Part shown: in pieces, positions 24,809-50,674 of the stretch | How positions within the stretch are numbered: the stretch's first letter is position 1 | How the letters are laid out: each line of letters begins with the position of its first letter | Origin: Litoditis marina | Lineage: Eukaryota; Nematoda; Chromadorea; Rhabditida; Rhabditidae | Length of the DNA: 64,000 nt | Direction: 5' to 3' | Assembly (NCBI GenBank): GCA_964036275.1 | Contig: OZ038440.1 | Coordinates: 5,369,690-5,433,689, forward strand | The notes under the pieces: generated by a model | What the model was told of the DNA's origin: nothing | What the model saw: the letters and a program-made list of their open reading frames with translations, nothing else | The model's database searches: none | Translations under genes and position numbers: made by a program

Positions 24809-25498
24809 GCCGCCGTCTCGAGTAGGTGTGTGTAGTTGGGAAGCAATTGCTGAAATCCTAGTAAGGTTATAAGAGATAGATAGATGATAATACGAATAAC
24901 TTTCAAACTATGGATACCAATCGGCAGACAACTTGGCAACAGACTGTGATTGAGGGTAGGAAATCAATGAACCAACTGAGAGACAAACATGGTGCCGAGA
25001 GGGAAGGAACACAACAAGCTATGTCAACACCGCACTTCTTCGTCAACGTTCCTGATGTTGACGAGAGAGAGAGTTAGAAAAAGAGAGAGAGGGAGAGAAC
25101 GAGATTGAGATAGATGGCGAGAGAGAAAGACAGCTGAGATAGAGGAAGGAAGAGAGAGAAAGAGAGAAAGAAAGAATCGTGAAGAATACAGTACCAACCA
25201 CCTGGTTGTCTGCTAAATAGATTGTGATGTGTTATCAGTGACATTTCGGTCATCAGGCAGAATGATGTGGGGAGGGGGGGGGGGGTTATATACATACCCA
25301 CGTAAATGAACCCGCTTGATTATTATGACGAATGATAGTACCGCACTATCACTATCATCAAGATACGATCACTGCCATCTCTCATTCGCCACATTAGTCA
25401 CTAGATATAGTCGTCGCCAACGGAAAGGTGGGTGACTACTGTAAATATCACTTTTCGCTGTGCATGCACATAGGTCTTCGATTCCAACGCTTACCGGT

Positions 25499-25562
25499 TG
25501 TTTATAGCACAGTGGTTAGTGCCTTGCTGCGAAACTTTTGCTCGCATGCTCGATCCCGGCGA
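25499..25562 (+). repeat. tRNA-derived SINE-like segment (copy at 28014-28077)
   Basis: tttatagcacagtggttagt matches a Pol III A box, and gctcgatcccgg, about 30 bp downstream, resembles a B box. The spacing is tRNA-like, but I see no proper anticodon arm or acceptor stem, so it is a SINE head or tRNA pseudogene rather than a working tRNA. The identical segment recurs in the second copy of the tandem duplication. Confidence 0.55.
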
Positions 25563-26317
25563 AAGACAGAAATTTATAAATTTGGCACCCACAATAAATC
25601 GAGACGTAAATATGAGGCAGGTTGTCTACTACTAGAAAAGCTTGTTATACATCTTTTCCTAGCTGGGAATGACCTATAAACCTAGACTCCTACAGTCTAC
25701 AATGCTGATATAATCCCTAGGACCCCGTGTACAACATAAGCAATTCCGCGAAAAGAGCTATATTCATCAATACACCTGTTCTTATAATATACCTATTCTC
25801 GAATCAACTATTATGATCTACGATCACTATAGGTTTTCTCGAATCAACTATTATGATCTACAATCACTACAGGTTACTGTAGGATAGAGTGAATGAAATG
25901 CTGGTGCCAATAGACGTTTTGTGCCAACCGACCGCCAGAGCAAACAAGTAGGGAAGTGGTTGGAATAGGGTTCAACTTCTATTTGTACAGGCTTATAGAA
26001 CACCCAAGCGACATCATCATCACGAGTATGAATTTACAAAATAATATAGCTAATGATGGTCAACTAGGTAGAACGAAAGAAACAAACCCTACCAGGGTGA
26101 GGTAATAGTAACATTGTACTTTGGTGTCGTGGTAGTATTTGGTCAGAATTGCTCTCTACTCTCTAGACTAAAGCTGTCAGTAATGTCATCAAAAAAAATA
26201 TTGGAGTATCTTGAAAAGAACCCGTCAACTATTCAAAAAAATACTTCCTGACCTTCTATCAATCATAACCTAATTAGCGAACAGGTCTAAATCTGCGTTT
26301 AGGAACAAGACGTCAAT

Positions 26318-26319
<2 letters not shown>

Positions 26320-26388
<69 letters not shown>
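26320..26388. repeat. (CT)n microsatellite
   Basis: About 33 uninterrupted CT units. The counterpart in the duplicated copy (about 28834-28885) is shorter and accounts for most of the length difference between the duplicates. Confidence 0.95.
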
Positions 26389-26390
<2 letters not shown>

Positions 26391-27171
26391 CACTATCATT
26401 CGTGCATATTTAGATGTTCACTAGAACATCCATAGATAGGCAGTGGTTAACAACCACTACTGATAAAAACCAGTTCGTCAGCAAATCGTGTTCATTACCA
26501 GAAAATTTAATTATAACACGTTACGCAAAGGTCGCGAAAGAAAGAACGATGAAAAAGAAGTGCAAGCGAAATCATACAAACATCATGCAAATCTGAAACA
26601 AAACTGGAAAACCGAATAAATGTAGGATAAAAGGTATAGATTAGATAAAATTTGCAACCTGTCCAAAAAATAAATTTCACAACGAATGTTTCAAGACAGT
26701 CTTTGATAACAATCTGCGTAGGTTGAATTATGGGTATGACTCAAGAACCAAATGGTCCAAAAAGCGAGTCTATTGGAACCAATCAATACATAGAACATAG
26801 ACTGGGGAGGACACTACAAACACCACTCGAAGGACTAGAAAAAGTCACATACTTATAAACAACAACAAATGACGCACAGCGTAATTTGTTTCAAATTAGT
26901 TATGCTTACTACTAATGAACAAATGATAACCTAACAGAAAAACTCAGGCTGGATAATATACTAACTATGAAGTAGGTCGGATGAACTAAGATAACAATAG
27001 GATAGAATGGGCTTTCTAAGCTTGTAGTAAATTAGTTATGCTTACTACTAATAGCTAATAGCATAATGACATAGGCTGAATAATATACTAACTACAGGGT
27101 AGGTCAGATAAAAAGATAACAATCGGATAGAAAACATGTGGGCTGTTTAAAGGGGACGGATTGATCAATTG

Positions 27172-27260
27172 AACAGGCGCGCGCGCCAGGGAAGCGTCGC
27201 GCGGCTTGTTGACTCATCCTCGACCTTGCGCAGCCAATCACGTCACTAGACATGGAAGAA
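27172..27260 (-). promoter_or_regulatory. CpG-rich promoter-like patch upstream of FRMD8, copy 1
   Basis: A GC-rich island with gcgcgcgcc and gtcgcgcgg, and clustered motifs that read on the minus strand as TGACGTGA (CRE/ATF-like), ATTGG (inverted CCAAT) and ATGAGTCAAC (AP-1-like). It lies 2.4 kb upstream of the FRMD8 start codon and is repeated almost unchanged at about 29687-29775. The promoter role is inferred; an untranslated first exon would have to be spliced to 24808. Confidence 0.45.
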
Positions 27261-27386
27261 AAAGACAGTCAACAACTACCCAACATCTTCAACTACAGGG
27301 GAGGAGTTAGAGAACACGGACTGACCAGACTCATTCTTCGAATCTGAAAATAGTTCATGAAATAATCTCAAAATTCACTGGCGAAC

Positions 27387-28832
27387 AGAGATAGATAGAT
27401 GATAATACGAATAACTTTCAAACTATGGATACCAATCGGCAGACAACTTGGCAACAGACTGTGATTGAGGGTAGGAAATCAATGAACCAACTGAGAGACA
27501 AACATGGTGCCGAGAGGGAAGGAACACAACAAGCTATGTCAACACCGCACTTCTTCGTCAACGTTCCTGATGTTGACGAGAGAGAGAGTTAGAAAAAGAG
27601 AGAGAGGGAGAGAACGAGATTGAGATAGATGGCGAGAGAGAAAGACAGCTGAGATAGAGGAAGGAAGAGAGAGAAAGAGAGAAAGAAAGAATCGTGAAGA
27701 ATACAGTACCAACCACCTGGTTGTCTGCTAAATAGATTGTGATGTGTTATCAGTGACATTTCGGTCATCAGGCAGAATGATGTGGGGAGGGGGGGGGGGT
27801 TTATATACATACCCACGTAAATGAACCCGCTTGATTATTATGACGAATGATAGTACCGCACTATCACTATCATCAAGATACGATCACTGCCATCTCTCAT
27901 TCGCCACATTAGTCACTAGATATAGTCGTCGCCAACGGAAAGGTGGGTGACTACTGTAAATATCACTTTTCGCTGTGCATGCACATAGGTCTTCGATTCC
28001 AACGCTTACCGGTTGTTTATAGCACAGTGGTTAGTGCCTTGCTGCGAAACTTTTGCTCGCATGCTCGATCCCGGCGAAAGACAGAAATTTATAAATTTGG
28101 CACCCACAATAAATCGAGACGTAAATATGAGGCAGGTTGTCTACTACTAGAAAAGCTTGTTATACATCTTTTCCTAGCTGGGAATGACCTATAAACCTAG
28201 ACTCCTACAGTCTACAATGCTGATATAATCCCTAGGACCCCGTGTACAACATAAGCAATTCCGCGAAAAGAGCTATATTCATCAATACACCTGTTCTTAT
28301 AATATACCTATTCTCGAATCAACTATTATGATCTACGATCACTATAGGTTTTCTCGAATCAACTATTATGATCTACAATCACTACAGGTTACTGTAGGAT
28401 AGAGTGAATGAAATGCTGGTGCCAATAGACGTTTTGTGCCAACCGACCGCCAGAGCAAACAAGTAGGGAAGTGGTTGGAATAGGGTTCAACTTCTATTTG
28501 TACATGCTTATAGAACACCCAAGCGACATCATCATCACGAGTATGAATTTACAAAATAATATAGCTAATGATGATCAACTAGGTAGAACGAAAGAAACAA
28601 ACCCTACCAGGGTGAGGTAATAGTAACATTGTACTTTGGTGTCGTGGTAGTATTTGGTCAGAATTGCTCTCTACTCTCTAGACTAAAGCTGTCAGTAATG
28701 TCATCAAAAAAAATATTGGAGTATCTTGAAAAGAACCCGTCAACTATTCAAAAAAATACTTCCTGACCTTCTATCAATCATAACCTAATTAGCGAACAGG
28801 TCTAAATCTGCGTTTAGGAACAAGACGTCAAT

Positions 28833-28889
<57 letters not shown>

Positions 28890-29885
28890 CACTATCATTC
28901 GTGCATATTTAGATGTTCACTAGAACATCCATAGATAGGCAGTGGTTAACAACCACTACTGATAAAAACCAGTTCGTCAGCAAATCGTGTTCATTACCAG
29001 AAAATTTAATTATAACACGTTACGCAAAGGTCGCGAAAGAAAGAACGATGAAAAAGAAGTGCAAGCGAAATCATACAAACATCATGCAAATCTGAAACAA
29101 AACTGGAAAACCGAATAAATGTAGGATAAAAGGTATAGATTAGATAAAATTTGCAACCTGTCCAAAAAATAAATTTCACAACGAATGTTTCAAGACAGTC
29201 TTTGATAACAATCTGCGTAGGTTGAATTATGGGTATGACTCAAGAACCAAATGGTCCAAAAAGCGAGTCTATTGGAACCAATCAATACATAGAACATAGA
29301 CTGGGGAGGACACTACAAACACCACTCGAAGGACTAGAAAAAGTCACATACTTATAAACAACAACAAATGACGCACAGCGTAATTTGTTTCAAATTAGTT
29401 ATGCTTACTACTAATGAACAAATGATAACCTAACAGAAAAACTCAGGCTGGATAATATACTAACTATGAAGTAGGTCGGATGAACTAAGATAACAATAGG
29501 ATAGAATGGGCTTTCTAAGCTTGTAGTAAATTAGTTATGCTTACTACTAATAGCTAATAGCATAATGACATAGGCTGAATAATATACTAACTACAGGGTA
29601 GGTCAGATAAAAAGATAACAATCGGATAGAAAACATGTGGGCTGTTTAAAGGGGACGGATTGATCAATTGAACAGGCGCGCGCGCCAGGGAAGCGTCGCG
29701 CGGCTTGTTGACTCATCCTCGACCTTGCGCAGCCAATCACGTCACTAGACATGGAAGAAAAAGACAGTCAACAACTACCCAACATCTTCAACTACAGGGG
29801 AGGAGTTAGAGAACACGGACTGACCAGACTCATTCTTCGAATCTGAAAATAGTTCATGAAATAATCTCAAAATTCACTGGCGAAC
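27387..29885. repeat. 2.5-kb tandem duplication, copy 2
   Basis: 2499 bp, nearly identical to 24872-27386. Unlike copy 1 it is followed by unique sequence (gactaaaaatcttg) leading to the 3' end of CHAC2. It carries a second promoter-like patch, so FRMD8 may have two alternative upstream start regions. Confidence 0.95.
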
Positions 29886-30515
29886 GACTAAAAATCTTGT
29901 ACCATCACATTCAGAAACCATCAGTGAGATATTTTTCAACAGTAACCAACTAAATAGAAGACTGAACACAGTAAGGTTCTGACTGAAGAGTTTGCTCTTT
30001 TCAAAGCAAGTCTATACGGCGTATGTTGCACTACCCCACTCTGTTTGTAGTTTGATGCCATTGCTTATCGGTAGAAAGATGTGAACAACTACGTGTCCCG
30101 AGATCAAACTACAACAAACTACTGAATTGCCTAGATAACATCCATTGCGGATCCACAACTAGCTGTGACAATCGAGAAAACTTTCCACGTTTCCGACCAA
30201 ACGTAGGGCGGCTTTGTTTATATCCCTTAAATCACCCGCTTTTCTTTCAAGTCGTGATTTTGAATTACACGAATTTCACCAATAGTCGACTTTACTGGTG
30301 AATAGGTTAACTTCACTCCCGTAATTTGGTTGCCCGAACGAAACACATGATTTTCAATCAATTTCTGTGGACAACAAAGGGCATGAGTGGGTGACGATTA
30401 AGCTTAAACAGATTGAGCGGTTGTCTCCTATTGAAAACTGTGTGAATGGATTTTCTCCAAGTTAGCACAACCACAGTTTGTATTGTATAAAATATCTATC
30501 ATGCCACTTTGAACT

Positions 30516-33500
30516 TTACGGTGATGTTCGAGCTTGAGTTATGAGCTGTAGCTGAATGCGTTGAAGCTTAACCGTCACCCACAACCCACTCAGCGCATCG
30601 CGTATGTTTCCAACCAACCTTATATATCCGAGGTTTTTCAGTACATTCTTTCCGAGTCCCGTCCGTTCACTCATGTCGAGAAGACGTTTCTCGAGATCGA
30701 ACACGTGCTCGTCCGGCGAATGAGGAGCCTGTATTCGAACAAGATCGAAGTACACAATTTAACAAAAGACAACCCCTTATATTCCTTGTATATAAAACAA
30801 ATAACATCAAAGTACATGATTTCGAAAAGAGAACCCCATATTTTCCCTGTATAAAATTTCAAAAAACTCCAAAATGGTCATCAACCTTCGCAAGGTTCAA
30901 AGCCTGGTGAAGCCTGGTGATCAGAACGAGAATCGAAAATCAATCTGCATAACATCTGCAGTTTACAACTCATTATTGACAGCTTGAAGACCTCTAAACA
31001 CACATGATAGCAAGTAGCAAGAGATAAAAATCTGAGCAAAGTACGGCTTTTTGCAGCGTTGTATTGTAAACAATACCAGATGTGCAGAAAAAACTCAGCA
31101 TTTGAGTCTTCTTATCTTCTAACTCCGTCCCATAAAGTTTGGTGAAACCATACCCTAAATGCTCAGCGTTTTGAGAAAAACCCCCCTGTTTTTGGTCCGA
31201 AGATTTGGGCAAAACCCCCTCAAAAATTCTCTGATTTAGCGATTTTCTAAATTAAGGGCAAAACCCCCTTATAATGGCTGAGGGGGGGGGGGGCACAACC
31301 CCCCTGTTTGAGAAAGTCACAACTCTGAGGCATTTAGGGTATGGGTGAAACCTAAGTGTTCCCTATTTCTCACCTGTTTATGAAGGACATCTGCTAATCG
31401 CAGCAGATACTCTAAATTCGAGCCAGACGGTCCGTGACTATGCAGAATCTGAAAAAGCGAAAAACCTTGACACTAATTAAATTTAAACTCTGTAAAAAAA
31501 ATTAGGAACTAAACCAAAGTCTGGTCAAGCCTCACTTTTCAGTGAGTTTTCATAGAAAATAACATGAGGCTCTACCTTTCTTTTTTTGGAAAATCTTCAT
31601 ATCAATCAGTTTTCAAAATGAGATTAAAGATTGAATCATTTTACACGACAAATCCTAAATTTATTCTATAAGTTGTGCAGGAACATACAATTTCGGCAAT
31701 CTCTTCATTTTCCGACGGGCCCGCGTGATGTTCGTTATCGTCTCCCACGTTCATGTACACCTGAATAGCACAAAATTTCCATGACACCTTGACTGATATG
31801 TGTTTTTTGAAGGTGCGGGCACGAAGAACGATCGGAAAACGTGTCTGCTCATCACTCGATCAAAGTGCAGAAAAACACTTACGTACAGTATTAGTCAAGT
31901 GCACAGTCACATGAATCATGTTAAACACAGCAGAACTGAGAAACGTGCAATAACAAAGCGCTAGATGTCTCATAAGAATGCTAACTTTACGTGACCATTC
32001 CATTTAATTTTGGTATACCGAAGAGCGTACAACCTCATATGTTAAAACTACAAAGTTCAATAAAGTTGCAGATCGCATCTCTCCAGTTGAGCTCTGACAC
32101 AGCACCTTTTTCGACAAATAAAATAGATTTTTCACAACTATTCGAATCGGTTTACGAAGTGTGTGATAGTTTTCACTCTGCGTTCCCCTACCTCAACATC
32201 GAAGGTTTCCAAACTAGGATCATCCGGTTGAAACGAGACAGACACACACTGCAAATGATATCATTGTGTTAGATTCCTGACTACGCTGAGTCATTTTAGT
32301 AGCTCAAAATAGTTAGTAAACAAGAAAAGAGAGCAGAGAGGATTCGCCCACGGAACAACTGACACGAGCGAGAATATAAAAGGCCAGAGAAGAAGAACTG
32401 GACACCGGTCTGGGCATGCTACCCACTTGTTAACTAACCTTTTGATCTCGTTTGTACTTGATATTAATCTTACCTTTCATCTCCCTCGTTTCATCTATAA
32501 TTGTTAGATTCAACATGCTTTAATAGTTCGCTTCGCTTCACTATTAGGTTAGATATTCACATCACACTCATATAATAACATTCATCTTTCATAGAACATA
32601 CAATCATATATTAACGTAAATTATATGTCACAATCTAGTCTATGTACAATATAAGTCACAAGCATTGACAATAGTTATCACAGTTGATATCACAGTAGTC
32701 ATCATAATTGTATCCACTATAAAACCCATAGTTTAAATCATATATCACACATTATTTACTTGTAGTCTGTTCTATAGATAGCTGACCGTTATTGACACCC
32801 TCTACGTAATATTTCTCCGACCTTCTGCCTACTCTACAATCTATAACACTGTAGGGCACTCTCTACAACTCTCTATCCTCTCTATCAATCCCCCTCATAT
32901 CCTGGGTCAACACACTCTTATTCCGTCAGTATTATTATATATTCGCCTTGATCTTTAATGACCCAACTCTCTCTATGTCCTTTGACGCCCACATACAGTG
33001 TATTCTATCTATATTACATAGGCACGAGCCACCATGTTTAGGTCATGATTTGAATATTACAGACATTATATTACATTGTTACTTGAGTGTCAACAACGGT
33101 CCAATTGCTTATTATAATAATAAACTTGCATACAACCCTGGTACTTGTTATAAGGACGTACCGCACATTATAAAATATTACCGCTACACCAGAAACACCC
33201 CATAATGGTAAGCAGGGTGCCGAGAGTTATTCAGAGTGACTCTACTTTCCCACCGGCACCTCTGCTGTAGTTTTGTCAATGTCAACCTATTATCTAATTG
33301 CTCTCCAAAAGAGATGGTCACTCACAATTTTGGGGTTTTCACCAGTAAAGGCGAGGAGTCCTAAACCGGATCCACCTCTAACCTTTCATGGAGTTCCTCG
33401 GGGCTTTAGATGCTAAAAGGAGCTAACCTTTCATGGAGGTCCTCGGGTTGCGGAATCCCCTGAGTTTCCAACTTTTTGACGAAAATTTTCGGGTTCCCAA

Positions 33501-36500
33501 AGCCGGGCTACCCATCTTTCATAGGGTCCCAGTTCCAACTTTCGATCAGGAAAAGAGTCTTAGACTACAAAACTAAGTCGGTACGTCCCTAAACCAGGTT
33601 TCAGGAACCAAACTACACTCGACGACCACTCGATACAGAAGAGAGGAAAAGTAAAATATGTCTATCGAAGGTCGACAAGGGAAAAGTCGACAACCGAAGA
33701 TCTTCAAACTATCTATACTGGCAGATATCAGCCAGAAGTCGAGGATAAAAAACTCGACTTGTTAGAAGCCACTGTGCAAATCAGTGCGGTCTAAGTAAAT
33801 GAAAATAAAATCGAGTGGACGCCGAATGCGGAAAAATAAAATACCAGAAAACGACGATTCGACGGAGATGTTTGGGAACCACGGGTAAACTGTCCTTTGT
33901 AATCGATGATGTTCTGTCCGGTTTCCACGGAGTCTGGCCTCATTGCTGAAAAATGCAATTATAAAATGGTGAAAGACAAGTGGAATGAAAATACTTTTGA
34001 TAAGGATGACAGAACGGAGACCAAAATCCTTGAATTAAAGCCCGGGCGAAGGGTGAACGGACTCCGTGAAGTAATCTTATTTACTAGAGTTCACCCTGAG
34101 GCTATGAAAAATGAAAATGAAGAAGGCCAAATATTTAGATTTAGGATCCAAGTTTATAATACCCCAGATTACAGAAAAAGCTAGCAGAAACGTGAGTTAA
34201 CCAGTTGCGAACCAAACAGAATCAGTACCTGATCAGTACACGGTTCTTCTACAACATTCGGAAATGGTTCCAAGAGGTTTTCTCACCCAAAAAGAAAAAG
34301 GGAAGAAATCAGGTAAACTTTGAAATGTATAATTACAGCACCCGACAGAGTGCTGCATGTGTGAAATATGGAAAGAAAATAGAGGAAACATACTACTTTT
34401 GTGAATTTAATATACTCAAATATCTTGTTAAAATAATCTAGGAAGGAAAAATGGTAGTACGTTGTTTTTTTTTGGAAAATATAGCTGTATGGAAAATTGT
34501 AAATAGGGATATTACCACCCATTCCAGCCAGTTACAGTACAGTTGTGGTGACGACCATAACTTCGTAACTAAGGAAAAGGTAAGAAGGCTAAAAAGACAG
34601 AAATAGCCACAAACCGGGTACAAAGTCCATAGGATTCTTCCAGAATCCGGGTAAACAACAGTCCCGTGCCGAACAGTTGGCCGAGCCATTCCGCGAATCT
34701 GGAAAATTAATGATAGCACTCGTCGTGTGATCTTTGGAGGCGAACGGAAATAGCCAGAAAATAGAACAAAAATTGAGAGAGTTATCGTGTACGCCTTGCG
34801 CGCCCAACACATCTAGTTCCTATCTGTGCTGGTCCCTCAACTGAACAGCTGACGCAACTACGCCACTCCAACAATTGGTCCCTTACGCCACCCAAACAAT
34901 ACATTAACCTGTCAACAAAAAGGTGATGATTGATTGCTCATCAGTCGTAGCTGACAGCCTCCAACATCAAACGAAAGCCGACATTATTCCGGCCAACCGA
35001 TACATCATATCCGGTCACACCTGTCAACCTTCTAAGACGCCGACGTCAACTATGACAAGAACATGACAACCTGTCATCACACGTGAAGCCACCTGCCCGA
35101 GATCAAAGGTTCCGACGACACCACCTGACAGAAGAATGGGTATATAAGCAGCCCTCCGGCCAGAGAAATCAGTCCAGTCCACAGCTCCGATGTGATCGCC
35201 TCTCCTCCGCGGCCGAGCCCGCTCCGTGCACCTATTCACCTATCTCCCCCTCAATGCAAGGATTACGGTATCCATTATAACCCCTATAACTAACTAAGCA
35301 TAGTCATTCTCATATTCGTATATTGATGTGTTGCCTTACATCATACTCTATATAAACACATATAATCCACACCCTGTTCGTGTTATAAGCTACAGTATCA
35401 AAGCAGGAATGTCCAGAGTCCTGATATGGAGGATCCGGGAGATTTTTTCTCTGAACTTCTGTTAGCTTACACATAACACGGAAAAGAGCGTAAATATTGG
35501 TTATCTTTAACATCAATCAAATCCTATTAATTTTTTCTCAAATTCTCAATAATCAATAGTAATTTCTTTGTTCTAAATTACATCCCAGACTCCTGATATG
35601 GAGGTCTTGGGAGATTTTTTTTGAAATTCAAGATAGCTTAAAATACGAAAAGGGACACAATTATCTTTTTTTCGAATTTACCAAATTATATGTTAAAATT
35701 ATTAATCATTTCAGCTACTAATATAATATTATTTAACTAATATAAGATAGTTTCTGAGATTTTTACACAGATAAACTACAGTAAGAGGCAAAAGCTTTTC
35801 AAGTAAACAAGTTTTTAACTCGTAAGGAAAGGGCGTATGACGTCAGATTAGATTCGAAAGTCAGTACAACCTGAAGTTTCGGAAGATTCTAAGGGCTAAA
35901 CGAATCTAAGAACTGTTGCCCTAACGAAGGACGATGTCTTGTAAGTGGTTCGAGTCCACGAACAATCCTTCGTACTCATAGTTATCACGAAAAACATTAC
36001 TAACTAAGATCTCATAAATAAGTTCAAGGTCTTATAAGATTACTAGGATAGAATACAGAACAATTGAAGGAGAAAAAACAATACCAGGTAATACTTGAAT
36101 GGTGAAAAAGACATTTGAGTCAGGTAAGACAAAGGTGGAAATAGTCCCTATAGATTGATAATATTCTTGTGCATGTAAACAAAATGATAACTCGTAGGGA
36201 AAGGGCGTATGACGTCAGATTAGAATCGAGAGAAGGTGAAACCTGAAGTTTCGAAAGATTCTGAGGGCGAAACGATTCTAAGAACTGTTGCCCTCACGGA
36301 AGACGTCTGTCTTGTAAGTGGTTCGAATCCACGAACAGGCTTCCGTACACATATTTCTCAAGAAAAGTGTAGTTAACTGAGAAAGTACGTATCATAGTTA
36401 GGAAATCAGTTTCGTAAGCCTGACTAACACAGTAAAAATAAAACACACAGAGCAACCAAGACGGGAGAGAAGAAGGCCAATCGAGAAATCTGACTAAAGA

Positions 36501-39500
36501 CATGGTCAATAAGCAACTGCAGCACCGTAAAAGGTAAAAGTAGTTCGGCATGCGATGGAACGGAGACTGCACGTTATTGCCAAGCACGAGACAACAAGCA
36601 CAACAAAACGAGTGGAAGTAGAGCGAGAGAGAAAACCAACTAAAAAGGAACAAATCGACCGAAGAAAAGCGGTTTTTGATTGGTTTCGTGAATGAGCTGG
36701 TGTATCGAGAGAAGAAAAGGAACATCAAACGGGGAAACGGGAAACGAAGAGACACCACGGGATAAGAATGATGGAGTACCAGTTGAAGTGAGCAGAAGTT
36801 GGAAAATGGCTACTGGATCAAACAAGGAGGACCGAGAACAACACGAGCTAAAGGAAATGCTGCACAGAGGAGAGCAGGTAAAAAAGGCAGAATATCGGAA
36901 AAAGACCCTGTAAGCAAGGTTTACGGAAGTAAGTATTTGAAAAGGGGAAATTTTTATAGAGAATAAGAAGGGGAACCATAAATGTGTTTGTTAGAAGAGA
37001 CTAGTAACTGAGATAATGCGGAAGATAATGCGGGATATTTTCAATATATACTCTTTCAATAAGGTCAACAAGATTGAACTATCCAAATTTACAATTTTTG
37101 AGATAGATGAATCTGAGAAGTTCAAGTATAACATGTTTTATGTCGAGCAAAGAACGCTCTCGACTCACAGCATCTGAAAGTAGGTTAAGGATACTACTCA
37201 GGTGTTAATTATATATTAATAGCTCTCTAATAGACTCTTCAAAGTAGGAAGTAGGGCAAGATGATAAGGCCTTAAGTATATCCTGAGAAAGAAAGTGGCT
37301 TGGAAAATAATATTTAATTGTACCGAATGAACTATCCAAATTTACAATTTTTGAGATAGAAGATTCGAAGAATATTTAGATTAAGTACCGAATGAACTAT
37401 CTGAATTTACAATTTTCACGATAGAGGATTCGATGAACAAAAAGTGTAGCTGAGGAAGATACCGAATGAACTACCCGGATTTACAATTTTCGTGGTAGAG
37501 GATTCGAGGAATAACAATAGATGAAACAGCAATTCAGAATGTACTACCCGAATTTACAATTTTCGTGGTAGATGATTCAACAATTCAATACAGTAAGGAG
37601 ATAAACTATTCATATGAGTAAAATAATAGAGAAAGTAGTCAAAGAGAACCGCAGAGCGGAACAATATACGAAATTATTGGCAGGCGACGAGTTTCCATGG
37701 CTTGGACAAGTGGATAATGGTTAAAAAAAATACAACACGAACTAATTTTTTTAGAAAGAAAGAGAGAGACCAAGACAGCAAGATAAAGCTGATAACTACT
37801 GATATAAGAAACTACTTTTACTTTTCGCCGAACCTAAGAATTTTAGCCAATAAGATAATATAAATAAAACTTAGCTAGTGAATGACAATAATTTTCATGA
37901 CCTTGCATCATTATTACTTCCGAGAAATATACCGAGAAATATACCGAGAAATAGGCCGAGAAATATACCGAGACACTGACTGAACTTCCCGCAACAAACT
38001 ACAATTATCGATTTTACCCCGAACAACCACAAGCCAATGGAAACTCATGTCGCCAAAGTATGGATCCAACAAGAAAAGTGCACACAAAAACGAAATTTGA
38101 GAGCTTCAGAGACGTCTGAACTAGTTCGACGATTTCACCAAAAACAGTGGAAACCAAAGCTGTTTTATTGAAGAAGATAAAACTAGTAGCTACTGAGTTT
38201 TAATGAAAACATTCACGAATGTAGAGGTTTTCGAAAGAAAAATTTAGTGTTAATTTAGTTATGTATCAGAGTGTAGTGATAATTTTAGTGACATTTCAGT
38301 ATACTTTCACAGATAGTGGTAGTTTACTGACGTTAACATTTGTAGTAGTCTACTCTCTTTTCAATGGTAGTTCAGTAAAACATTTCAGTTATTGAATGGA
38401 TAGTGAACGATTGCTGAAGTATCGAAAGTAAATTTTACTACTGGTAATTTACTAAATTATCGACAGTGCCCAATTTCCTATGTATACTGTACTCTGTTTC
38501 ACCAATCCATGTCCTTCTACAGTAATCCGTCAAGTATTCAGAAAACTTTTCACGATCCATTGTTTTTGTTCAAAGTTACTTAGTTTGAAGTGGTAAAGAT
38601 GCAAAAGAATCTAACAAAGATTGGGCAACATTCAAAAATGGTAACACACCAAACTTTGACCTGGAAGTTTGAACATATTACTGTAGAGGGTTATAAGTGG
38701 GTGGAACAAACCATAATTACAAACGTTAAAAGCACTAAAGCGAGAATTCCAATGAAGAGTGACAACACGAAAAAAAAATTTGAGAGAAGCACACACATGT
38801 CAAGTGAATGACACGACGAAAATGTATTGAGTTTTGAGCTCGACATTTGTTTGATAATTTTTTTGGTTTCTTCAAATCCTTTTCCTTATTGAAAATGTAT
38901 TTTATAGTCGTTTTAATTAGATTTTGTTCTCTTGAAAACAAAAAGGACCAAATTTCCAGCAATTTTAGAATCATCCTTACATTTTGGTGGAAAAATACGT
39001 TTGAAGAAACTGAAAACAACTTTGGAGAACTCAATTCCACAATGAATTAATTCTCATAAATTATCATTAGGCACATTTTTTTCGATCAAAATATACTAGC
39101 CAAACATTTGTTATTGAAACAGAGAAGATAGTGAGAACGATAACTAGTGACGAGATTATCAAGTAACTTTCAACGAGTAACTTTCACAAAACGACAAAGT
39201 AAGAACGGCAATAGTCTGGACAAGAGAGAAGAAGTAGTCGACAGCTCTGATCTTTCCTCTGGCGCTTATATACGGAGAATCGGAGCAGTTGTTGCCAAAC
39301 TTCAAAAGAAAAACCGCCAAGAATAGTTTAAAGTACAGTAATCCTGGTTATGGTACAATCAGGCACCAGTGGCACGTTCAAACCAGAACGACTAAGCTTA
39401 TGATGAATTAGGCGGTAAAACTGACAATACAAAGCACTTTTGACAAGTAAGCAAACAGAATGACAAGTACAGAACACGATTAAGCTGGTAGCAACAGATG

Positions 39501-42500
39501 GGAACGAGAACAAAGTATGCCGATAAACGATACATCAAACGTTGTTTTCGGGAAAAACTCTAGAAATTCTCCAAACCACGCACTATGGCCCGAGGCACTA
39601 GCTGTCTGAAACCTATGTGGGAGCTATCTCTAGACGACAAGCACAGTATATAAGCGCGATCAAAAAGAGCAGAGCATCAACCAGCCAACTGGTACAACTA
39701 CAAGCCGCTCTCCATGTTCTCCGAGCCCACTCCTGAACAAGGCACCGCTGCAAGAACAACAACCCGCCTACCCACCCACCAATCAGGAAGGATCGACCCA
39801 CGGACTACGGTAAACCAGGTACACTTCTCGAGTGAGAAATCGCCATAACCAATAACCTTAGAATAAGCTTTAGCTGAGATACGCCCAAGAGTAGAGTTTT
39901 GGGTAAACGTGCATGAGCGGTTGGAGCTCAGACGACGAATCAGAGAGCCGTTCTGACAGTAGAGAAGACTTCTTCACACCTAGAGAAAGAAACCGAGATT
40001 CACACACATCAGTAGACACAGACCTAGAGGACACTATAGTAGAACGAGGACTAGGTAACGGGTTAGATAACATCAGTGACAGAGAGCTCCGACTATTCAA
40101 TCGAAATCAACAGAGATAGTTCGACCTTTTAAACCTTCGACGGGTTCTGTACGTACCTAACGACAGTCTCAGAAAAAAAAACACAACCCCCAATTCCACA
40201 ACAGGAGCTAGCAGAACTTGACCGCTTACCAAATAGGATAGACAACCGTTACAATATATCATCGGCTTGAATCTAACGATAACGATAGTGACACCGACAT
40301 CATGGCCAATCAACCGCTCGTAGATGTTCTAGACAAGTTAGCTGGTTCCATGAACAATATGGCTTTGGCAGGTTACGCTGAAGAACTCTCAGTTTTCAAA
40401 GGAGACCAGGAAGCTAAGGGGATTCGATAATTCTTTGAACGTTTCAATGAAATCGGCACAGCGCTAGGCATGGATGAACCAAAATTGAACCCACACTTTT
40501 ACCACTCCATCTGAGAGGAAAAGCAAAAGCTGTTTATGAAGGCGCGACTCTAGCAGAGAAACAAGATTGGCAACTAATTACAACTAAACTTAAGGATACA
40601 CTAACATCTGCTAGCTATCTGGACAAAGTTCAAGGAGAAGTGATGCATCTTAAGATGGGTAACACAGAGAGTCCTACTATATTCTATATAAGAGTACAAA
40701 ACACTCTAACTGAAGTTTATCCCAACAACAACAACATGGTAAATACTATGATTCGTCCTCTATTTGCAGCAGGATTTTTGACCACTATCAAAAACAAGTT
40801 GATGATGTTAGGAGAACTTAACGCAGATGTAGATATTCTAGTAACGGATGCCGAACGAATTTATGACGTAATCAAATCAAATAACCAGAAAAAAGGAGAG
40901 ACTAATTTTATGGTAAACAGTATTGTTGACTCTTTTTTGGAAATAGTTGCAAAAACTAATCAAACACACCCAGAAAGAGCAAACTATGGTAATCGCACGT
41001 TCCCAAGAAACTACAACTCTTTCGAGAATGGAGAAAGACATTTTCAGAATAACTACCAAAGAGAATCAGTAGGATATAATTTCTATAGACGTAATCAAAA
41101 TGAGGTGGGGCGCTATAGTAGCAGAGGACGTGATTGGAGCACGCCATTGACAGATAGAGAGCGCTGCCAAACAGAGCAGTGTTATACAGTGCCTAGTCAA
41201 CAAGGAAATGTAAAAGAAGAAAACGAAACAGGATATGAGAATTTCAAACAAAATGACAAATCACAACCACGCTTCGATAGTGTGAATTTTGATCGATTTT
41301 GAGAAAAAAAAGCTAGAGGAGTAGAAGTATATCACTTAATTTTTTTCAGTCATTAAAATTAATTCATTCTCGTACTTCACTTAAACTTTTTTTGATCAAC
41401 TCTTCTACATCACAATACAGAACAAACTTCTAAATATAAGTCAATCTAATTAATAGTTATGTTGTACAAAATTGATACTGCGTAATTTTTATAGTTCGTA
41501 CCGTTCTTGTTATTTTAGAAAGAAGTTATAGGCCTCTGATTAGACAACAGAAAAAACCACGTTTTGTTTAAATTAATGTTCGTTATATTCTTCAATATTA
41601 ACTATAGCACAAAACGGGATTGATCCCAATTTTCGTGAAGAAGTTACTTATAATTTGTTTCAGTTGTAATTTTGAATTTTGATTTCAGTTACCGCTCTCA
41701 AGATGGAAAAAGAGAATGGTCAATTTTTCAAAATTTGTCGTTTTCGCATTTAACACCAGTGTACGAACTACAACTAATACAGTACCGTTTTATCTGGCGC
41801 ATGGCACAGAAGCCCAAACTTTCGCACACATCATTCATAATATTCCCTACCAATCTTTTTTAACGATGTAAACTTCAAAACTAATTTGGGGGAAGCGCTA
41901 GAAAGAACTAAACAATCAGCAAAAGATATGATTGAAACTGCCGCAGTCATACTAAAACAAATGTATGACAAAGAAAACAAGGTAAGTTTGAAAGAACTGA
42001 AAATTGGACAGCTGGTGATGCTCCGAGTCGAAGCCAGCAAGCCGAAACTCAGCCTCAAATGAACAGGACCATACGAAGTCATCGCAAGCAACGGACCAAA
42101 CGTCAAACTACAACTGATCAGCAACCCAAAGAAATAACAAGAAGTGCAATTGGATTAAGAAATATTCCAATGCCACGAAAGAGAAGACGAAAGACGTGCC
42201 AAAGGAAGAAGGAGATACTAATCTGGACGAACGTGACAGCAGTGGAGAAGAAAGTACATAACAAAGACAAAACCAGTTTACAAGAAGATTATCCTTTTTT
42301 GTAATATTATAACTAAGTTTAAGTATAATTGGAATTTTTCGCTAAGAACATATAGGATGTATAGTTATTTAGGCTCCACCATGTATAGTTTAATTGTATA
42401 AGTGATAAAATGTGTTGTTCACAATTATATAACTGTAGACTAGGTAGGAACATATTTTTGTAGTTTTTTGCTGTGTCATAGTTCAATTGTATGACCATAA

Positions 42501-45500
42501 GCGAGAATGACTAATAGGTAGACATTTAATTCTAACTTACCGAGATAGAAAGAGTGAGAACATCAAAAAGGCTATTAAGTTTTTACAAATGGCACATACG
42601 TTTCCCGCAAACGATTTCGGAGTTTCTTGCAAACGGCCACTATATATTTGTAAAACAGCCATTTCTGTCTGCCTTTGCCTCAGGTACGCAGATTCCGATC
42701 TCTACCGTACAGGTTCAAAGAAGGATTTTCTCATTCTTAACTCGTTTCCGCTCGAGGGCGAGCTATCTGAAAGAGGGGGGATATCGTGTACGCCTTGCGC
42801 GCCCAACACATCTAGTTCCTATCTGTGCTGGTCCCTCAACTGAACAGCTGACGCAACTACGCCACTCCAACAATTGGTCCCTTACGCCACCCAAACAATA
42901 CATTAACCTGTCAACAAAAAGGTGATGATTGATTGCTCATCAGTCGTAGCTGACAGCCTCCAACATCAAACGAAAGCCGACATTATTCCGGCCAACCGAT
43001 ACATCATATCCGGTCACACCTGTCAACCTTCTAAGACGCCGACGTCAACTATGACAAGAACATGACAACCTGTCATCACACGTGAAGCCACCTGCCCGAG
43101 ATCAAAGGTTCCGACGACACCACCTGACAGAAGAATGGGTATATAAGCAGCCCTCCGGCCAGAGAAATCAGTCCAGTCCACAGCTCCGATGTGATCGCCT
43201 CTCCTCCGCGGCCGAGCCCGCTCCGTGCACCTATTCACCTATCTCCCCCTCAATGCAAGGATTACGGTATCCATTATAACCCCTATAACTAACTAAGCAT
43301 AGTCATTCTCATATTCGTATATTGATGTGTTGCCTTACATCATACTCTATATAAACACATATAATCCACACCCTGTTCGTGTTATAAGCTACAGTATCAA
43401 AGCAGGAATGTCCAGAGTCCTGATAGAGTCATGAGAAAAACAGAAGCAGTTGGTGGATACTAGTTTAATACCGTGGGCAGCAAGCTGAACCAATACATAA
43501 GACCAAGCGAGACTACAGCTCCCCAACCATCCCTCCACTTCTCTTCTTCTTCAAGTTCTTTCTAGTTCTCCTCCATACACATTGCCATATAGATTTGCAT
43601 ATACATACAGAAGTAACACCTCATTAGGATAGAAGAGGTTACATACCAGTAACCGACATAGATACTGGTATGAAACATACTTCCAACCTGGTACTCTTAG
43701 ATAACAACTCTTATATAGCAACTATAGTAGCAGTCTTCAACTAGAAATTAAATAGGTATTGAATAATCTACATACAAGAGTCAAGCCTAGTATGATAGAC
43801 TCGTGGTATAATTCCGATTGTTGCAGAAAAATTATTCAAAACTCAACACAAAGTCAATCACATTCAGAACCTATCTCGAATTTGGATAAAGTTATTGGAC
43901 AAGGAACCAGTCCACAGTCAACACAACAAACAACCAGACGATCAATCGACAACTACAAGAAGAAAAGGTACGCACAGAGAACAATTCGGAGTGAAAGAAA
44001 AAGTGTATGAGCCAATTTAGACGATCTGAAAGGCTTAGAAATAAGAGGGCACCTCTAGCTACAATAGATTCTGATAGCGAACACTCAGACGCAGACTTTT
44101 TGAACAACTCGTTCAGAGAAATTACAGCGACGAGTCGAAAAACGAGTCGTATAGCAATAAATCGATAAGAAACGAGAACGAACTTGAGCAAAACACCCCG
44201 GAAGCACAAAACCAAGGGGATAACGCAAGCATAGAAGACAACGCAGACGAGGAAATCGATATCGCAACACGGAGTTTTGGCGATAGACTAAGAAACGCAT
44301 TTGGAATTCTCTCGCCGGCAACTCCGAGACAGAGGCAAATTCAATCCCCAACTAACTCAAAGGCTCGTTCACCATCAGTTACCCCACGTAACCTAGGAAG
44401 TAACCAGAATAACACGGCTAAGGCTAAGGCAGCTAAAACTATGAACGCACAACAACTGCATCTTATGAATACTCTTCAACAGCAAGTAGCTGACCTAACC
44501 CTCCAGGTACAAAACAATAATGCGGCAAGAGCGGGAGCGCAAAATAACGCTAACTTGTCCACTATGCAAATGGTAAAAATTCTAGATGATAGAGTTGGAA
44601 AATATGCAGGAGGCGAGGAATCACCGTTCGTTAAGTGGCTCGAAAAGTACGCAAATACCATGAGAACTTTTGGAATACCAGAAGCTAAAGGAATGCAACT
44701 GCTCCCCCTGTATTTGGTAGATGCAGCGAAGATAAGATACGACGCTATACCTAACAAGGCTAACTTGACTTGGGCAGAACTAACACGCCAATTAGCAGAG
44801 AAGCTGAAAAATCCACTAAGTATCCAGAATGCATGAGAAGAACTGCATGAAATTAGTCAAGGAGGAGAGAGTGTAGGCCAATATGCGAAACGTGTGAAAG
44901 AGAAGTGTGAGCTAGCTTACCAGGGTCAAGGAAACATGGAAGATCATCTGATTGGTCATTTTCTGAGAGGTCTCAGACCAGACATCCGCAAAACCGTGAG
45001 ACGCATGACTATACCAGCAACTTTCGAAGACGCTATTGAAATCGCCGAAAAAGAAGCGCGGATTTTGCTACAAGAAAAGATCGAAGAAATAGATCATGAT
45101 GATGCTGGGAGAGTTAATGCTGTCGTTTTAGAAAACAAAATTAAGAGGCTCGAAAGAGATTTCAGAAAGTCGATTGGAAATCAAGAAGATCAGGAGCAAT
45201 GGGATCAGCAAGAACAAGATTAAAATTAAAATATTTTACCATTGCGGAGCCAACATTGGCAGCAAATGCCCCCGCAAGGATCGTCGTATGACCAGAGGTG
45301 GTCCCTGGACCCACCTGAAAACGGGTGGATAGGACCTGCCCAGCCATATCATGAGGGATCCTGGCAAGACCATGGTACAGAGTATTATAGAGGACGAGGT
45401 ACGGACCGTCCTGACGACTCCTTCTGGGGGTACTACAGTACCCCTGGCGGCTATCCAAGCCAGAACTTCTATGGAAACAACGGAACTTACTACAACTCAG

Positions 45501-48487
45501 AGGACAATGGCGTGCAGGCTAATTTTGCAGAAGAGCCAGCTCAACAAGCCATGATGAACTGTACTGGGCAAAACCAGAGTTCTAGTCCGAGTCAAAATCA
45601 GAGTCAAAATTCGAGTCAAAATCAGAGTCAAAGTCAAAATGAAAATGGAAACTATGTACGATCGCTTCCCGTCTGGCAAAACCCAGGAAACTGGGCCATG
45701 TTGGCCACGATTGTGGGTCTATTGGCACTCTGTTTTGTAGCCGAAGCATATCAAAATCGTGATGTTCATGAAACAGGTGAGATGTATCAACCATTCAATA
45801 CTACCGACTTTTACCTCACTGGAAGAGAGCAGCAAATCATCCGGACCAGAGTACACCTTTACGCAGAAAAACAACCGCGTTTCAGGATGAAAACCAGTAC
45901 GTGCTCCCAAATTAAAATGAATGTCAAAAAGTCTCTAGCGGAAATGCATGAAAATGCGAAGCAAGGAGTATTTAATAGCGTAGAAAGAGTTAAATCATCG
46001 GTACGCGACAAAATATTCGAATTTGTAGCATTTTCGTTGGTTCTTATGTTTACTATGTTCAGGCTAAGATGCGGAATCAAATGGTTCATCACTCGGAAAA
46101 TGAGTAAATCAAACACGAATGCAGCCATGCCGGATCTGGGTCAGCTTTTCAACAAAGCGGCATGTAGTAATAAATCATCAGAGAAGGTTAGAGAAAAGGT
46201 GATAGAGTTGATCGACGACATACCGTTAATAGGGAAAGATGATTTACAACTACTTGAGACATCGACATTTACTATCAGACCAGCAGCATCGCCAATACCT
46301 AGCGATTATGAGATTTCCAAAATTCACACTGGGAATAGATCAGCTAAGAAACATCGAAATAGCTTACCTTTCATCCAAGCATATTTTAATGGCTACGGTA
46401 TGCCATGCCTCCTTGACACTGGGGCCACGGTCTCATATATTGGCAGATCTACAATGGGAAAAATTATCGGAACAAATTTGGCGGACAGTCAAAGACTGAC
46501 AGCAGAAACAGCAAATGGATCAACTTTTGAATTCGTAGCAAATACAAAAATGACAGTTCGCATAGGAAGCATAGATATACTTCAAACATTCATGATATCG
46601 AAAAACTCAGAATGTCCTGTTCCAGTTTTACTGGGAGCAGACTTTTTGATGAATGCTAGTATGCTTGGACACCAACTGTCTCTGAATTTTGCCAAAAACC
46701 AATTAGAAATAGGAAAAGAACAACTAAAACTAATCGAGGGTAATAAGATCAGAACTGAAAGGACAGTAGAAGAAATTGACAACACACTGAACAAAATAGA
46801 CAGAATAAGATATTGCGAAGAGTACGCAACATATGTTCGAGACACTAGCGAAATGGACATTCCCGCAGAGCACTCTGTCAGTGATTTATTGAAGTGTAAG
46901 CAAACTCAATCAAGAGTCAAAATATCGGACATCTAAAAGATTTTCATTTAATCGAGAAACACAAAATTAAACCATCTGTTACTGTCTGGAACTAGATAGG
47001 ATTAGAAACCTTTGTCGTATTTTTGAAATAAAATTAGAACAACGGATAGACTATCGAGATTAAATAACAGGAACTGTGTGAAAAGGAATAAAAAAAACGT
47101 AGAAAACATCGTGTCAGGAATCTTGAGACATAAAAAAAGCCTCGGAGACCTCAGCATGTCGAAGAGGGGGGATGTTAGATTCCTGACTACGCTGAGTCAT
47201 TTTAGTAGCTCAAAATAGTTAGTAAACAAGAAAAGAGAGCAGAGAGGATTCGCCCACGGAACAACTGACACGAGCGAGAATATAAAAGGCCAGAGAAGAA
47301 GAACTGGACACCGGTCTGGGCATGCTACCCACTTGTTAACTAACCTTTTGATCTCGTTTGTACTTGATATTAATCTTACCTTTCATCTCCCTCGTTTCAT
47401 CTATAATTGTTAGATTCAACATGCTTTAATAGTTCGCTTCGCTTCACTATTAGGTTAGATATTCACATCACACTCATATAATAACATTCATCTTTCATAG
47501 AACATACAATCATATATTAACGTAAATTATATGTCACAATCTAGTCTATGTACAATATAAGTCACAAGCATTGACAATAGTTATCACAGTTGATATCACA
47601 GTAGTCATCATAATTGTATCCACTATAAAACCCATAGTTTAAATCATATATCACACATTATTTACTTGTAGTCTGTTCTATAGATAGCTGACCGTTATTG
47701 ACACCCTCTACGTAATATTTCTCCGACCTTCTGCCTACTCTACAATCTATAACACTGTAGGGCACTCTCTACAACTCTCTATCCTCTCTATCAATCCCCC
47801 TCATATCCTGGGTCAACACACTCTTATTCCGTCAGTATTATTATATATTCGCCTTGATCTTTAATGACCCAACTCTCTCTATGTCCTTTGACGCCCACAT
47901 ACAGTGTATTCTATCTATATTACATAGGCACGAGCCACCATGTTTAGGTCATGATTTGAATATTACAGACATTATATTACATTGTTACTTGAGTGTCAAC
48001 AACGGTCCAATTGCTTATTATAATAATAAACTTGCATACAACCCTGGTACTTGTTATAAGGACGTACCGCACATTATAAAATATTACCGCTACACCAGAA
48101 ACACCCCATAATGGTAAGCAGGGTGCCGAGAGTTATTCAGAGTGACTCTACTTTCCCACCGGCACCTCTGCTGTAGTTTTGTCAATGTCAACCTATTATC
48201 TAATTGCTCTCCAAAAGAGATGGTCACTCACAATTTTGGGGTTTTCACCAGTAAAGGCGAGGAGTCCTAAACCGGATCCACCTCTAACCTTTCATGGAGT
48301 TCCTCGGGGCTTTAGATGCTAAAAGGAGCTAACCTTTCAATTGCAGAATACAAAAGTTAATTTTTTGATTGAAGAAATACAGCTCTAATGTTATACTTGA
48401 ATTGTGTAACCTGCAACTGATATAGTTCCCAAAATTGTCCAAAACGTGTTATAAGAAGAATATAAGGGAAAAGGGCAGTGAAAAAAT

Positions 48488-48573
<86 letters not shown>

Positions 48574-49640: not shown

Positions 49641-50674
49641 TATCAGATTGTCTAATAAACGGACAGCCGACTGTAAACATACACGTTTAATTTATACGAG
49701 AGTATCCTGAACTCATGTTTAACAAAACTAAAACGTAATGAAAAGCAGGAAATAGCTTGTGGATAAGGAAAACCGTATTGAAACTGATGTCAATAAAAGT
49801 GGAGAACAATTTATGTAGACCGCAACATCTTACATGAAAGAGATCAGACACTCTTTAAAGGTCCACGGACACTTGAACTGGAAACGAACACCCCATATGA
49901 GAGACAGTGGAACGGCTAGCCAAATCGGATAGACGCACAAGTACAGCGATAAAGTACACAAAGAAATCGTCTTATCTGGGGCTCACATGCACAATTCGTG
50001 TATAGTACAGTGGAAAACACCAGATAACATATTATACATGTCAATCTTAGAAGACTGCGTAGAAAATCGGAGCGGGAGCTGCAAACCCTGTCAATACATG
50101 GATCAAACACTTCACAAACACCTTCTTTATACAGAACATGGAATGATTATACTAGAAAAACACAGGAAATAAAGCGACAAACAACATTTCTCTATGTCGA
50201 ACTAATCCTGCACAATTCTGAGAACAAGTATGAATAGTAAGTAAAGCAACACAATAGTTACATCAACACGTATTGAACTACAGTAGTAAACCGCGCGCAG
50301 TCCTATATGAACTAACCATGCACTAATACATCAAAATTCGACTACTCTGAGAAATGAACAACCGGTTGGAGGTAAAAGCAAAAAGAAACTGGCAATGAAA
50401 TGTGTGACAATAAGAACACTCATGGACAGATAGAAGCAAGAGTATACGTTGTTCACATCTTATTTTTCATTCTCCAGTTCCTACGAAAATGAGCAATTTG
50501 ATATAACACTAGCTTTGGGGAAATTACTAGCTACTCAACAAAGCCAACTACTCCAACGAGGCGCTCAAAAGAACGAAGCGTAAACATCGAAGCTGCCTAT
50601 AAATAAATAAACTTCAACTACCTATCACAAACGTTAAGGAGATACTCTAAGACCGTAATATTTAAAGTGATGGA
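49641..50674. other. intergenic region, CHAC2 upstream / PPCDC downstream
   Basis: About 1 kb between the CHAC2 start codon and the PPCDC stop codon, both on the minus strand. It must contain the CHAC2 promoter, but I see no clear TATA or CpG island. Confidence 0.5.

What the first reader, a model, noticed from the sequence alone, without database searches (positions are those of the whole stretch)
37071..37579. Five 44-nt hairpins with an invariant loop and compensating stems in a retrotransposon leader
Seen directly: five segments (37071-37114, 37324-37367, 37389-37432, 37463-37506, 37536-37579) share one layout of exactly 44 nt: a 5-bp outer stem, a 3x3 internal loop, a 5-bp inner stem, 2 more pairs, a 13-nt loop RATTTACAATTTT and one bulged base on the 3' side. 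The loop is nearly invariant. The stems change on both sides and keep pairing: outer AGATT/AATCT against CGAAT/ATTCG; inner CTATC/GATAG against CTACC/GGTAG; closing CA/TG, TG/CA and CG/CG. Unconstrained repeat decay would not give this. Inference: a selected RNA structure, perhaps bound by Gag for packaging/dimerisation, or a translation or localisation element. I know of no described family with this loop.
Basis: partly seen in the sequence, partly recalled or inferred. Interest (0 to 1): 0.92.

Follow-up and report, generated by a model that had tools for sequence, protein, structure and literature searches.

The report
Covarying RNA hairpin array in retrotransposon
A family of retrotransposons, probably in a roundworm, carries one to five copies of the same small RNA hairpin near the start of its genome, and evolution keeps the hairpin's shape while its letters change, so it is very probably a working RNA signal whose job is still to be tested.

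Summary
Observation confirmed and strengthened. Five 44-nt hairpins lie at the stated places, in the ~4.8-kb leader of an LTR element with identical LTRs. Genome searches found the hairpin in 12 element copies of one Ty3/gypsy lineage, each time on the element's strand and towards its 5' end. In 27 distinct copies 92% of pair cells are standard pairs and 9 of 14 pairs show double changes. A tree-based null gives 2.6±1.4 compensatory events against 12 seen, 32.5±4.1 breaks against 11. The loop, UUUAYAAUU, is really 9 nt. G·U beats A·C 16 to 2, so the sense RNA folds. No Rfam match. An acceptor-like site lies downstream in 8 of 11 leaders, donor-like sites upstream in only 4 of 11, so an intron position is possible but not general. 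Reading: a modular cis-acting, protein-binding RNA signal, most likely for packaging genomic RNA, second for nuclear export. The three copies with a detected RT have one hairpin, the other nine two to five (one phylogenetic contrast). Against: three places with the neighbouring block C, and one LTR-paired element, show no hairpin in the stretches read. Function untested.

The parts
37071..37114 (+). hairpin 1 (outer AGATT/AATCT, inner CTATC/GATAG, closing CA/TG)
37324..37367 (+). hairpin 2 (outer CGAAT/ATTCG)
37389..37432 (+). hairpin 3 (closing TG/CA)
37463..37506 (+). hairpin 4 (inner CTACC/GGTAG, closing CG/CG)
37536..37579 (+). hairpin 5 (4-bp outer stem)
37679..37720 (+). block C: conserved GGCGACGAGTTYCCAT..., just downstream of the array; the same 7-bp hairpin appears in the MFE fold of 5 of 14 stretches, not in the window's
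   Evidence: 14 places in the genome, 11 of them in hairpin-bearing elements
34783..35426 (+). 5' LTR (644 bp, TATC...GATA)
   Evidence: 0 differences from the 3' LTR; GAGT on both sides of the element
42782..43425 (+). 3' LTR
35427..35446 (+). primer-binding-site-like stretch (starts TGG right after the LTR)
   Evidence: by position only, tRNA not identified
35810..35975 (+). second structured leader domain, copy A (possible pseudoknot plus hairpin enclosing GTAAGT)
36182..36348 (+). second structured leader domain, copy B, 372 nt downstream of copy A
38025..38148 (+). block D: conserved stretch with acceptor-like CTTCAG|AGACGTC
   Evidence: the site is in 8 of 11 leaders examined, not found in L054, L055, L056
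40191..41290 (+). gag-like coding region, interrupted in this copy; no reverse transcriptase found in the element
42769..42781 (+). polypurine tract before the 3' LTR

Best explanation
The array is a modular cis-acting RNA signal of a Ty3/gypsy LTR-retrotransposon lineage. Each 44-nt unit is a stem (5 bp, 3x3 internal loop, 5 bp, one bulged base, 4 bp) that presents a nearly invariant 9-nt loop, UUUAYAAUU, to a protein (inferred); several units in a row would give multivalent binding (inferred). In the window subgroup the array lies between donor-like and acceptor-like sites; in other members only the acceptor-like site is seen, which would still remove it if the mRNA is trans-spliced, as in nematodes (inferred; no splicing shown). 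It would then mark full-length genomic RNA. Shown: structure, sense strand, selection for pairing, restriction to this lineage in this genome, constant place in the element.
For: Pairing is selected: (12 compensatory events against 2.6±1.4, breaks 11 against 32.5±4.1, 0 of 300 simulations each). Loop slowest: 0.89 changes per column against 2.11 in the inner stem and 4.89 in flanks. Sense RNA folds: G·U 16, A·C 2 cells. Lineage-bound: 27 of 27 hits of one pattern and 26 of 27 of a looser one lie in the same 12 element copies, on the element's strand, about 0.4-5 kb after the 5' LTR start (positions). Acceptor-like CTTCAG|AGACGTC or CTTTCAG|AGACGTC downstream in 8 of 11 leaders. Copies in which no RT was found keep two to five hairpins, the 3 with RT have one, as expected for a signal used in trans.
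Against: No protein partner, expression or splicing data. Donor-like GTRAGT lies between LTR and array in only 4 of 11 leaders (window, L052, L060, L061), and 3 of 11 (L054-L056) lack the acceptor-like site, so the intron argument does not hold for the whole lineage; short splice-like words also occur by chance (others in the window leader: 35708, 38293, 38382). Block-C places C4:27613444 (RT match about 12 kb downstream), C3:14351810 and C1:14804934 show no full hairpin in the stretches read (best E 0.068, outer stem only), and LTR-paired element C1:10074422 none in its first 5 kb (best E 0.94), so the hairpin is not required throughout the lineage. RT against no-RT is one subfamily against the rest. 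Nothing here separates packaging from export.
Confidence: 0.4

Rival explanations
1. Nuclear-export element for unspliced RNA: the hairpins bind a Rev-like element protein or a host export factor and carry genomic RNA out of the nucleus, a step for which the nematode element Cer1 needs its protein CERV.
For: Array upstream of an acceptor-like site in 8 of 11 leaders, and downstream of donor-like sites in 4 of 11; the host is probably a nematode; in Cer1, a Ty3/gypsy element of C. elegans, genomic-RNA export needs CERV (PMC10309623: abstract, sections 6 and 15 and passages seen). Multimerising binding would favour arrays.
Against: No CERV-like gene was sought here; the RNA target of CERV is not given in the parts read; copies with RT manage with one unit; donor-like sites are missing in 7 of 11 leaders.
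Confidence: 0.25
2. Translation element or leader-shaping structure (IRES, shunt, or control of splicing) for a leader too long to be scanned.
For: The 4,875 nt after the 5' LTR hold 63 ATG, so plain scanning to gag is unlikely.
Against: The array is 2.6 kb upstream of the gag-like region; if the leader is spliced or trans-spliced, the array is absent from the mRNA.
Confidence: 0.12
3. Binding site for a host RNA-binding protein or small-RNA pathway, serving localisation, stability or silencing rather than a step run by the element's own proteins.
For: Near-invariant single-stranded AU-rich loop; several copies in a row.
Against: Kept by compensation across subfamilies, which points to benefit for the element; no paired copy outside the lineage, as a host-gene motif might show.
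Confidence: 0.14
4. DNA-level array (insulator or transcription-factor sites) like the Su(Hw) array in Drosophila gypsy, with hairpin shape a by-product of dyad symmetry.
For: Same leader position as the gypsy insulator (PMC7168160, passages seen).
Against: A duplex-DNA reader needs fixed letters, yet stem letters change in matched pairs; G·U is kept 16 to 2 over A·C, as expected for single-stranded sense RNA.
Confidence: 0.03
5. Ordinary repeat decay or gene conversion among tandem copies, without function.
For: Copies do recombine: by eye, the fourth hairpin of L052 has the 5' flank of window hairpin 4 and the 3' flank of hairpin 5. No single structural pair reaches E below 0.05 over all column pairs.
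Against: Phylogenetic nulls exceeded for the structure as a whole; hairpins stay alike where the spacers no longer align.
Confidence: 0.05

Closest known systems
Retroviral/retrotransposon packaging signal (psi) in the 5' leader
   Same: RNA stem-loops between primer-binding site and gag on genomic RNA
   Different: Here one module is repeated up to five times over 0.5 kb, starting about 2.3 kb from the LTR start; no Gag binding shown. Details of psi are recalled; a passage on packaging of Gag-less BARE2 was seen in PMC3735527
Cer1 / CERV genomic-RNA export in C. elegans
   Same: nematode Ty3/gypsy element needing a way to export unspliced RNA (PMC10309623)
   Different: CERV is a protein; a term search of that paper found no RNA hairpin or stem-loop; no CERV relative was sought here
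CTE (MPMV) and RRE (HIV) export elements
   Same: structured cis RNA elements on unspliced RNA (as described in section 15 of PMC10309623)
   Different: anatomy differs (recalled): CTE has two inverted internal-loop motifs, RRE is branched
gypsy Su(Hw) insulator array
   Same: repeated motif array in a Ty3/gypsy leader (PMC7168160, passages)
   Different: bound as DNA by Su(Hw); here pairing covaries
Sirevirus palindromic repeated motifs
   Same: clustered palindromic motifs in non-coding parts of LTR elements (PMC2829016, passages)
   Different: plant Ty1/copia, upstream of the TATA box in the LTR and near env, mostly with a CGG-CCG core, proposed as transcriptional boxes

Membership tests
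any described RNA family (Rfam 15) | covariance-model match | tested here: not met
   window 30000-50000, E up to 1; the only match, snoR130, lies at 30770-30879 and is below its gathering score
LTR retrotransposon | LTRs, target-site repeat, primer-site-like and polypurine stretches | tested here: met
Ty3/gypsy lineage | RT, RNase H and integrase zinc-binding domains in a lineage member | tested here: met
   for relative C1:9927502; best protein relatives. Not found in the window element itself; the gypsy label rests on these domains and on recalled family knowledge
retroviral-type packaging signal | conserved RNA structure in the leader of genomic RNA, between primer site and gag | tested here: met
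   (gag located in the window, L052 and L054-L056 only)
retroviral-type packaging signal | absent from spliced RNA | tested here: inconclusive
   acceptor-like site in 8 of 11 leaders, donor-like in 4 of 11; no transcripts available
retroviral-type packaging signal | specific Gag binding and encapsidation | not testable with these tools
   needs protein and RNA experiments
dimerisation (kissing-loop) signal | self-complementary apical loop (about 6 nt, recalled) | tested here: inconclusive
   read by eye: loop UUUAYAAUU holds only AAUU
RRE/CTE export element | binding of an export factor or adaptor | not testable with these tools
   no binding data
duplex-DNA insulator array | binding sites fixed in sequence | tested here: not met
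   stem letters covary, G·U over A·C; the loop is fixed, so a loop-only DNA site is not excluded

The most novel reading that the evidence does not exclude
A modular, dose-like packaging or export code: one RNA hairpin recognised through its UUUAYAAUU loop is present once in RT-bearing elements and has been multiplied to three to five in parasitic elements without RT, which thereby compete for the helper's proteins; the array number changes by template jumps between hairpins.
Probability: 0.2. Interest if true: 0.82.

Novelty: new variant of a known kind. Interest (0 to 1): 0.62.

Why it matters
To my knowledge few cis-acting RNA signals of animal Ty3/gypsy elements have been defined. Here copies within one genome give an exact unit, its strand, its fixed and free positions, and natural copy-number variation from 0 to 5. 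That makes the question of how such an element singles out its own genomic RNA directly testable with short RNAs.

Tried and rejected
Viral-contig scan with one exact pattern: 0 matches. SL1 RNA search, to support the nematode host: not completed, so the host rests on RT relatives alone. tRNA scan with the bacterial code: 0 genes. By eye I considered a SECIS-like or k-turn G·A core (GAA/ANG internal loop) and set it aside: the pair in columns 11-46 is kept as U-G in two copies, and no Rfam family matched at the array. Paper searches for a described hairpin array in an LTR-element leader; only listings with titles and abstract starts seen, apart from the four papers named.

That holds for 4 of 11 leaders; the acceptor-like site alone for 8 of 11. 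I lowered packaging from 0.42 to 0.40 and export from 0.27 to 0.25, and raised the translation and host-factor rivals a little.

Rows dropped or trimmed before counting: two of the three hits of the second C2 element (L053:8559-8604, loop deleted but stems still paired; L053:8616-8683, 3' half replaced). Model hits at chance level left out: L054:2766 (E 0.071) and L060:977 (E 3.3); L014:2902 (E 0.95) and window 34493 (E 3.5). The third L061 hairpin was extended by hand beyond the model match (4942-4981 to 4936-4987). Identical rows counted once (31 to 27).

Full report
WHAT IS THERE. Each is an imperfect hairpin: 5-bp outer stem (4 bp in copy 5), 3x3 internal loop, 5-bp inner stem, one bulged base on the 3' side, then 4 bp and a 9-nt loop UUUACAAUU. 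All five fold this way alone and inside a 721-nt stretch.

WHERE IT IS. The element is bounded by two 644-bp LTRs without a single difference, with TATC...GATA ends and GAGT on both sides, a TGG-starting primer-site-like stretch and a purine tract. It appears to be nested in another LTR element whose LTR-like repeats start at 32267 and 47173. Between the 5' LTR and a gag-like coding region at about 40191-41290 (interrupted in this copy) lies a leader of about 4.8 kb. No reverse transcriptase was found in the element. The RT of a relative (C1:9927502) is closest, among named hits, to strongylid nematodes: 53% and 59% identity for the two best named, 67% over 43% of the query for another. So the host is probably a nematode; this is an inference.

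COPIES IN THE GENOME. Searches by DNA, pattern and LTR gave 12 element copies with the hairpin: the window (5), C4:3.40M (4), two near each other on C2 (3; and 2 plus an interrupted third), two on C17 (3 each), C330 (3), C521 (3), C4:9.07M (3), and C1:9.93M, C3:11.36M, C3:9.11M (1 each). Specificity: 27 of 27 hits of one pattern with up to two mismatches and 26 of 27 of a looser one with up to one fall in these copies; the odd one does not pair. Reversed-pattern controls gave 0 hits, and 3. These searches score best candidates only, so counts are lower bounds. In each copy the hairpin is on the strand of the nearest LTR match and downstream of it; a gag or pol part was located further downstream in the window, L052, L054-L057 and, by RT match, in the two C3 copies, not in the others. 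Of 11 same-strand LTR pairs that I read, 10 hold hairpins; the eleventh (C1:10074422) shows none in the 5 kb read and has lost much of the leader. Three more places with conserved block C (C4:27613444, C3:14351810, C1:14804934; 3 of 14) show no full hairpin in the 1.4-2.1 kb read (for the last also a further 3.8 kb). In the last, the place of the hairpin falls in a 167-nt gap relative to L057.

IS THE PAIRING SELECTED? MAFFT alignment A2 holds 31 hairpins, 27 distinct. With 12 pairs: 91.4% of 324 cells paired, 40 double-changed cells against 12.7±4.4 in column shuffles, 0 of 500. With 14 pairs: 92.1% of 378 cells, 9 pairs with double changes, 42 cells against 12.7±4.2, 0 of 500; but the number of further pair types is not unusual (61 of 500 shuffles reach it). 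Sliding the partners destroys the signal. Shuffles ignore descent, so I simulated substitutions along the hairpin tree, keeping number and kind of changes on each branch: 42 against 9.7±5.3 double-changed cells, 92% against 65±5% paired (0 of 500 each); the number of pairs with double changes was reached by 2 of 500. Events by parsimony: 12 compensatory changes against 2.6±1.4 and 11 breaks against 32.5±4.1 (0 of 300 each). Pair by pair the power is low: only columns 18-39 and 21-35 have p below 0.001, neither reaches E 0.05 over all column pairs, and the top-scoring pair (3-28, E 0.05) is not in the structure. Changes per column: loop 0.89, outer 5' strand 1.20, inner stem 2.11, outer 3' strand 2.40, flanks 4.89. 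G·U 16 cells, A·C 2, so the sense strand is the one that folds. Some copies were located with a model that knows the structure, but the elements themselves came from sequence searches.

OTHER CONSERVED LEADER PARTS. Islands shared with diverged members include LTR ends, primer-site region, a 166-nt structured domain present twice 372 nt apart, the hairpins, block C, block D, gag and the region before the 3' LTR; not every member shares each of them. The 166-nt domain folds with a possible pseudoknot and a hairpin that encloses GUAAGU; in 9 distinct copies 97.4% of 234 cells pair and four pairs show double changes (11 of 500 shuffles reach four), so only a few events underlie this. An acceptor-like C(T)TTCAG|AGACGTC follows the array in 8 of 11 leaders and was not found in L054-L056; a donor-like GTRAGT lies between LTR and array in 4 of 11: window, L052, L060, L061 (words before the LTR start in L057 and L059 not counted). 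So the array may sit in an intron in some members, or in an outron if the mRNA is trans-spliced; no splicing is shown.

HOW IT MOST LIKELY WORKS. A fixed loop on a replaceable stem is the anatomy of a protein-binding RNA hairpin; repetition suggests multivalent binding. Since the hairpin belongs to one lineage here, is kept in its leader, and is kept by copies without RT that must be served in trans, packaging by the lineage's Gag is my first choice (0.40); export of unspliced RNA is second (0.25), encouraged by Cer1, where export of genomic RNA needs CERV (PMC10309623: abstract, sections 6 and 15, and passages). RT was found in 3 of 12 copies, each with one hairpin, and not in the other 9, with two to five. 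The three are close relatives, so this is one contrast. One search scored 82 of 330 candidates; one search covered only the fetched stretches, which do not cover every element whole; the C521 copy lies near a contig end.

COMPARISON AND NOVELTY. No Rfam family matches at the array. Packaging signals, RRE/CTE and the gypsy insulator array (PMC7168160, passages) share place or logic, not anatomy. BARE2, which cannot make Gag, is nevertheless packaged (PMC3735527, passages). Sirevirus palindromes (PMC2829016, passages) are a different motif proposed as transcriptional boxes. The listings of six paper searches showed nothing like this array. I rate it a new variant of a known kind: the logic (cis RNA signal in a retroelement leader) is known, the repeated covarying module is new to what I could search.

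Noticed in passing
window 35810-35975 and 36182-36348: A second structured leader domain in two copies 372 nt apart, with a possible pseudoknot, a hairpin enclosing GTAAGT and a T-arm-like GTGGTTCGARTCCAC; four pairs change on both sides among the copies.
   Followed up: partly
window 35586-36487 against L060 and L061: About 900 bp are 95% and 93% alike between elements whose LTRs match only in pieces at about 86%, which suggests leader exchange by template switching.
   Followed up: no
L057:2028-3947 (-): One unbroken frame joins the C-terminal part of a Monjiviricetes-type fusion glycoprotein domain, a likely membrane segment (by eye), an aspartic protease and a weak dUTPase-like match, upstream of an RT frame: an unusual place for an envelope-like part.
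   Followed up: no
window 45230-46936: The outer element's protease frame also carries two hydrophobic stretches ahead of the protease (by eye; protease), perhaps the same layout.
   Followed up: no
L053:8559-8683: One hairpin has lost its loop with stems intact, and the next is joined at its loop to glycoprotein-like sequence: breakpoints at hairpins.
   Followed up: partly
window 32267-32566 and 47173-47472; 24872-29134: Further long direct repeats: LTR-like repeats of the outer element, and what looks like a tandem duplication of about 2.5 kb.
   Followed up: no
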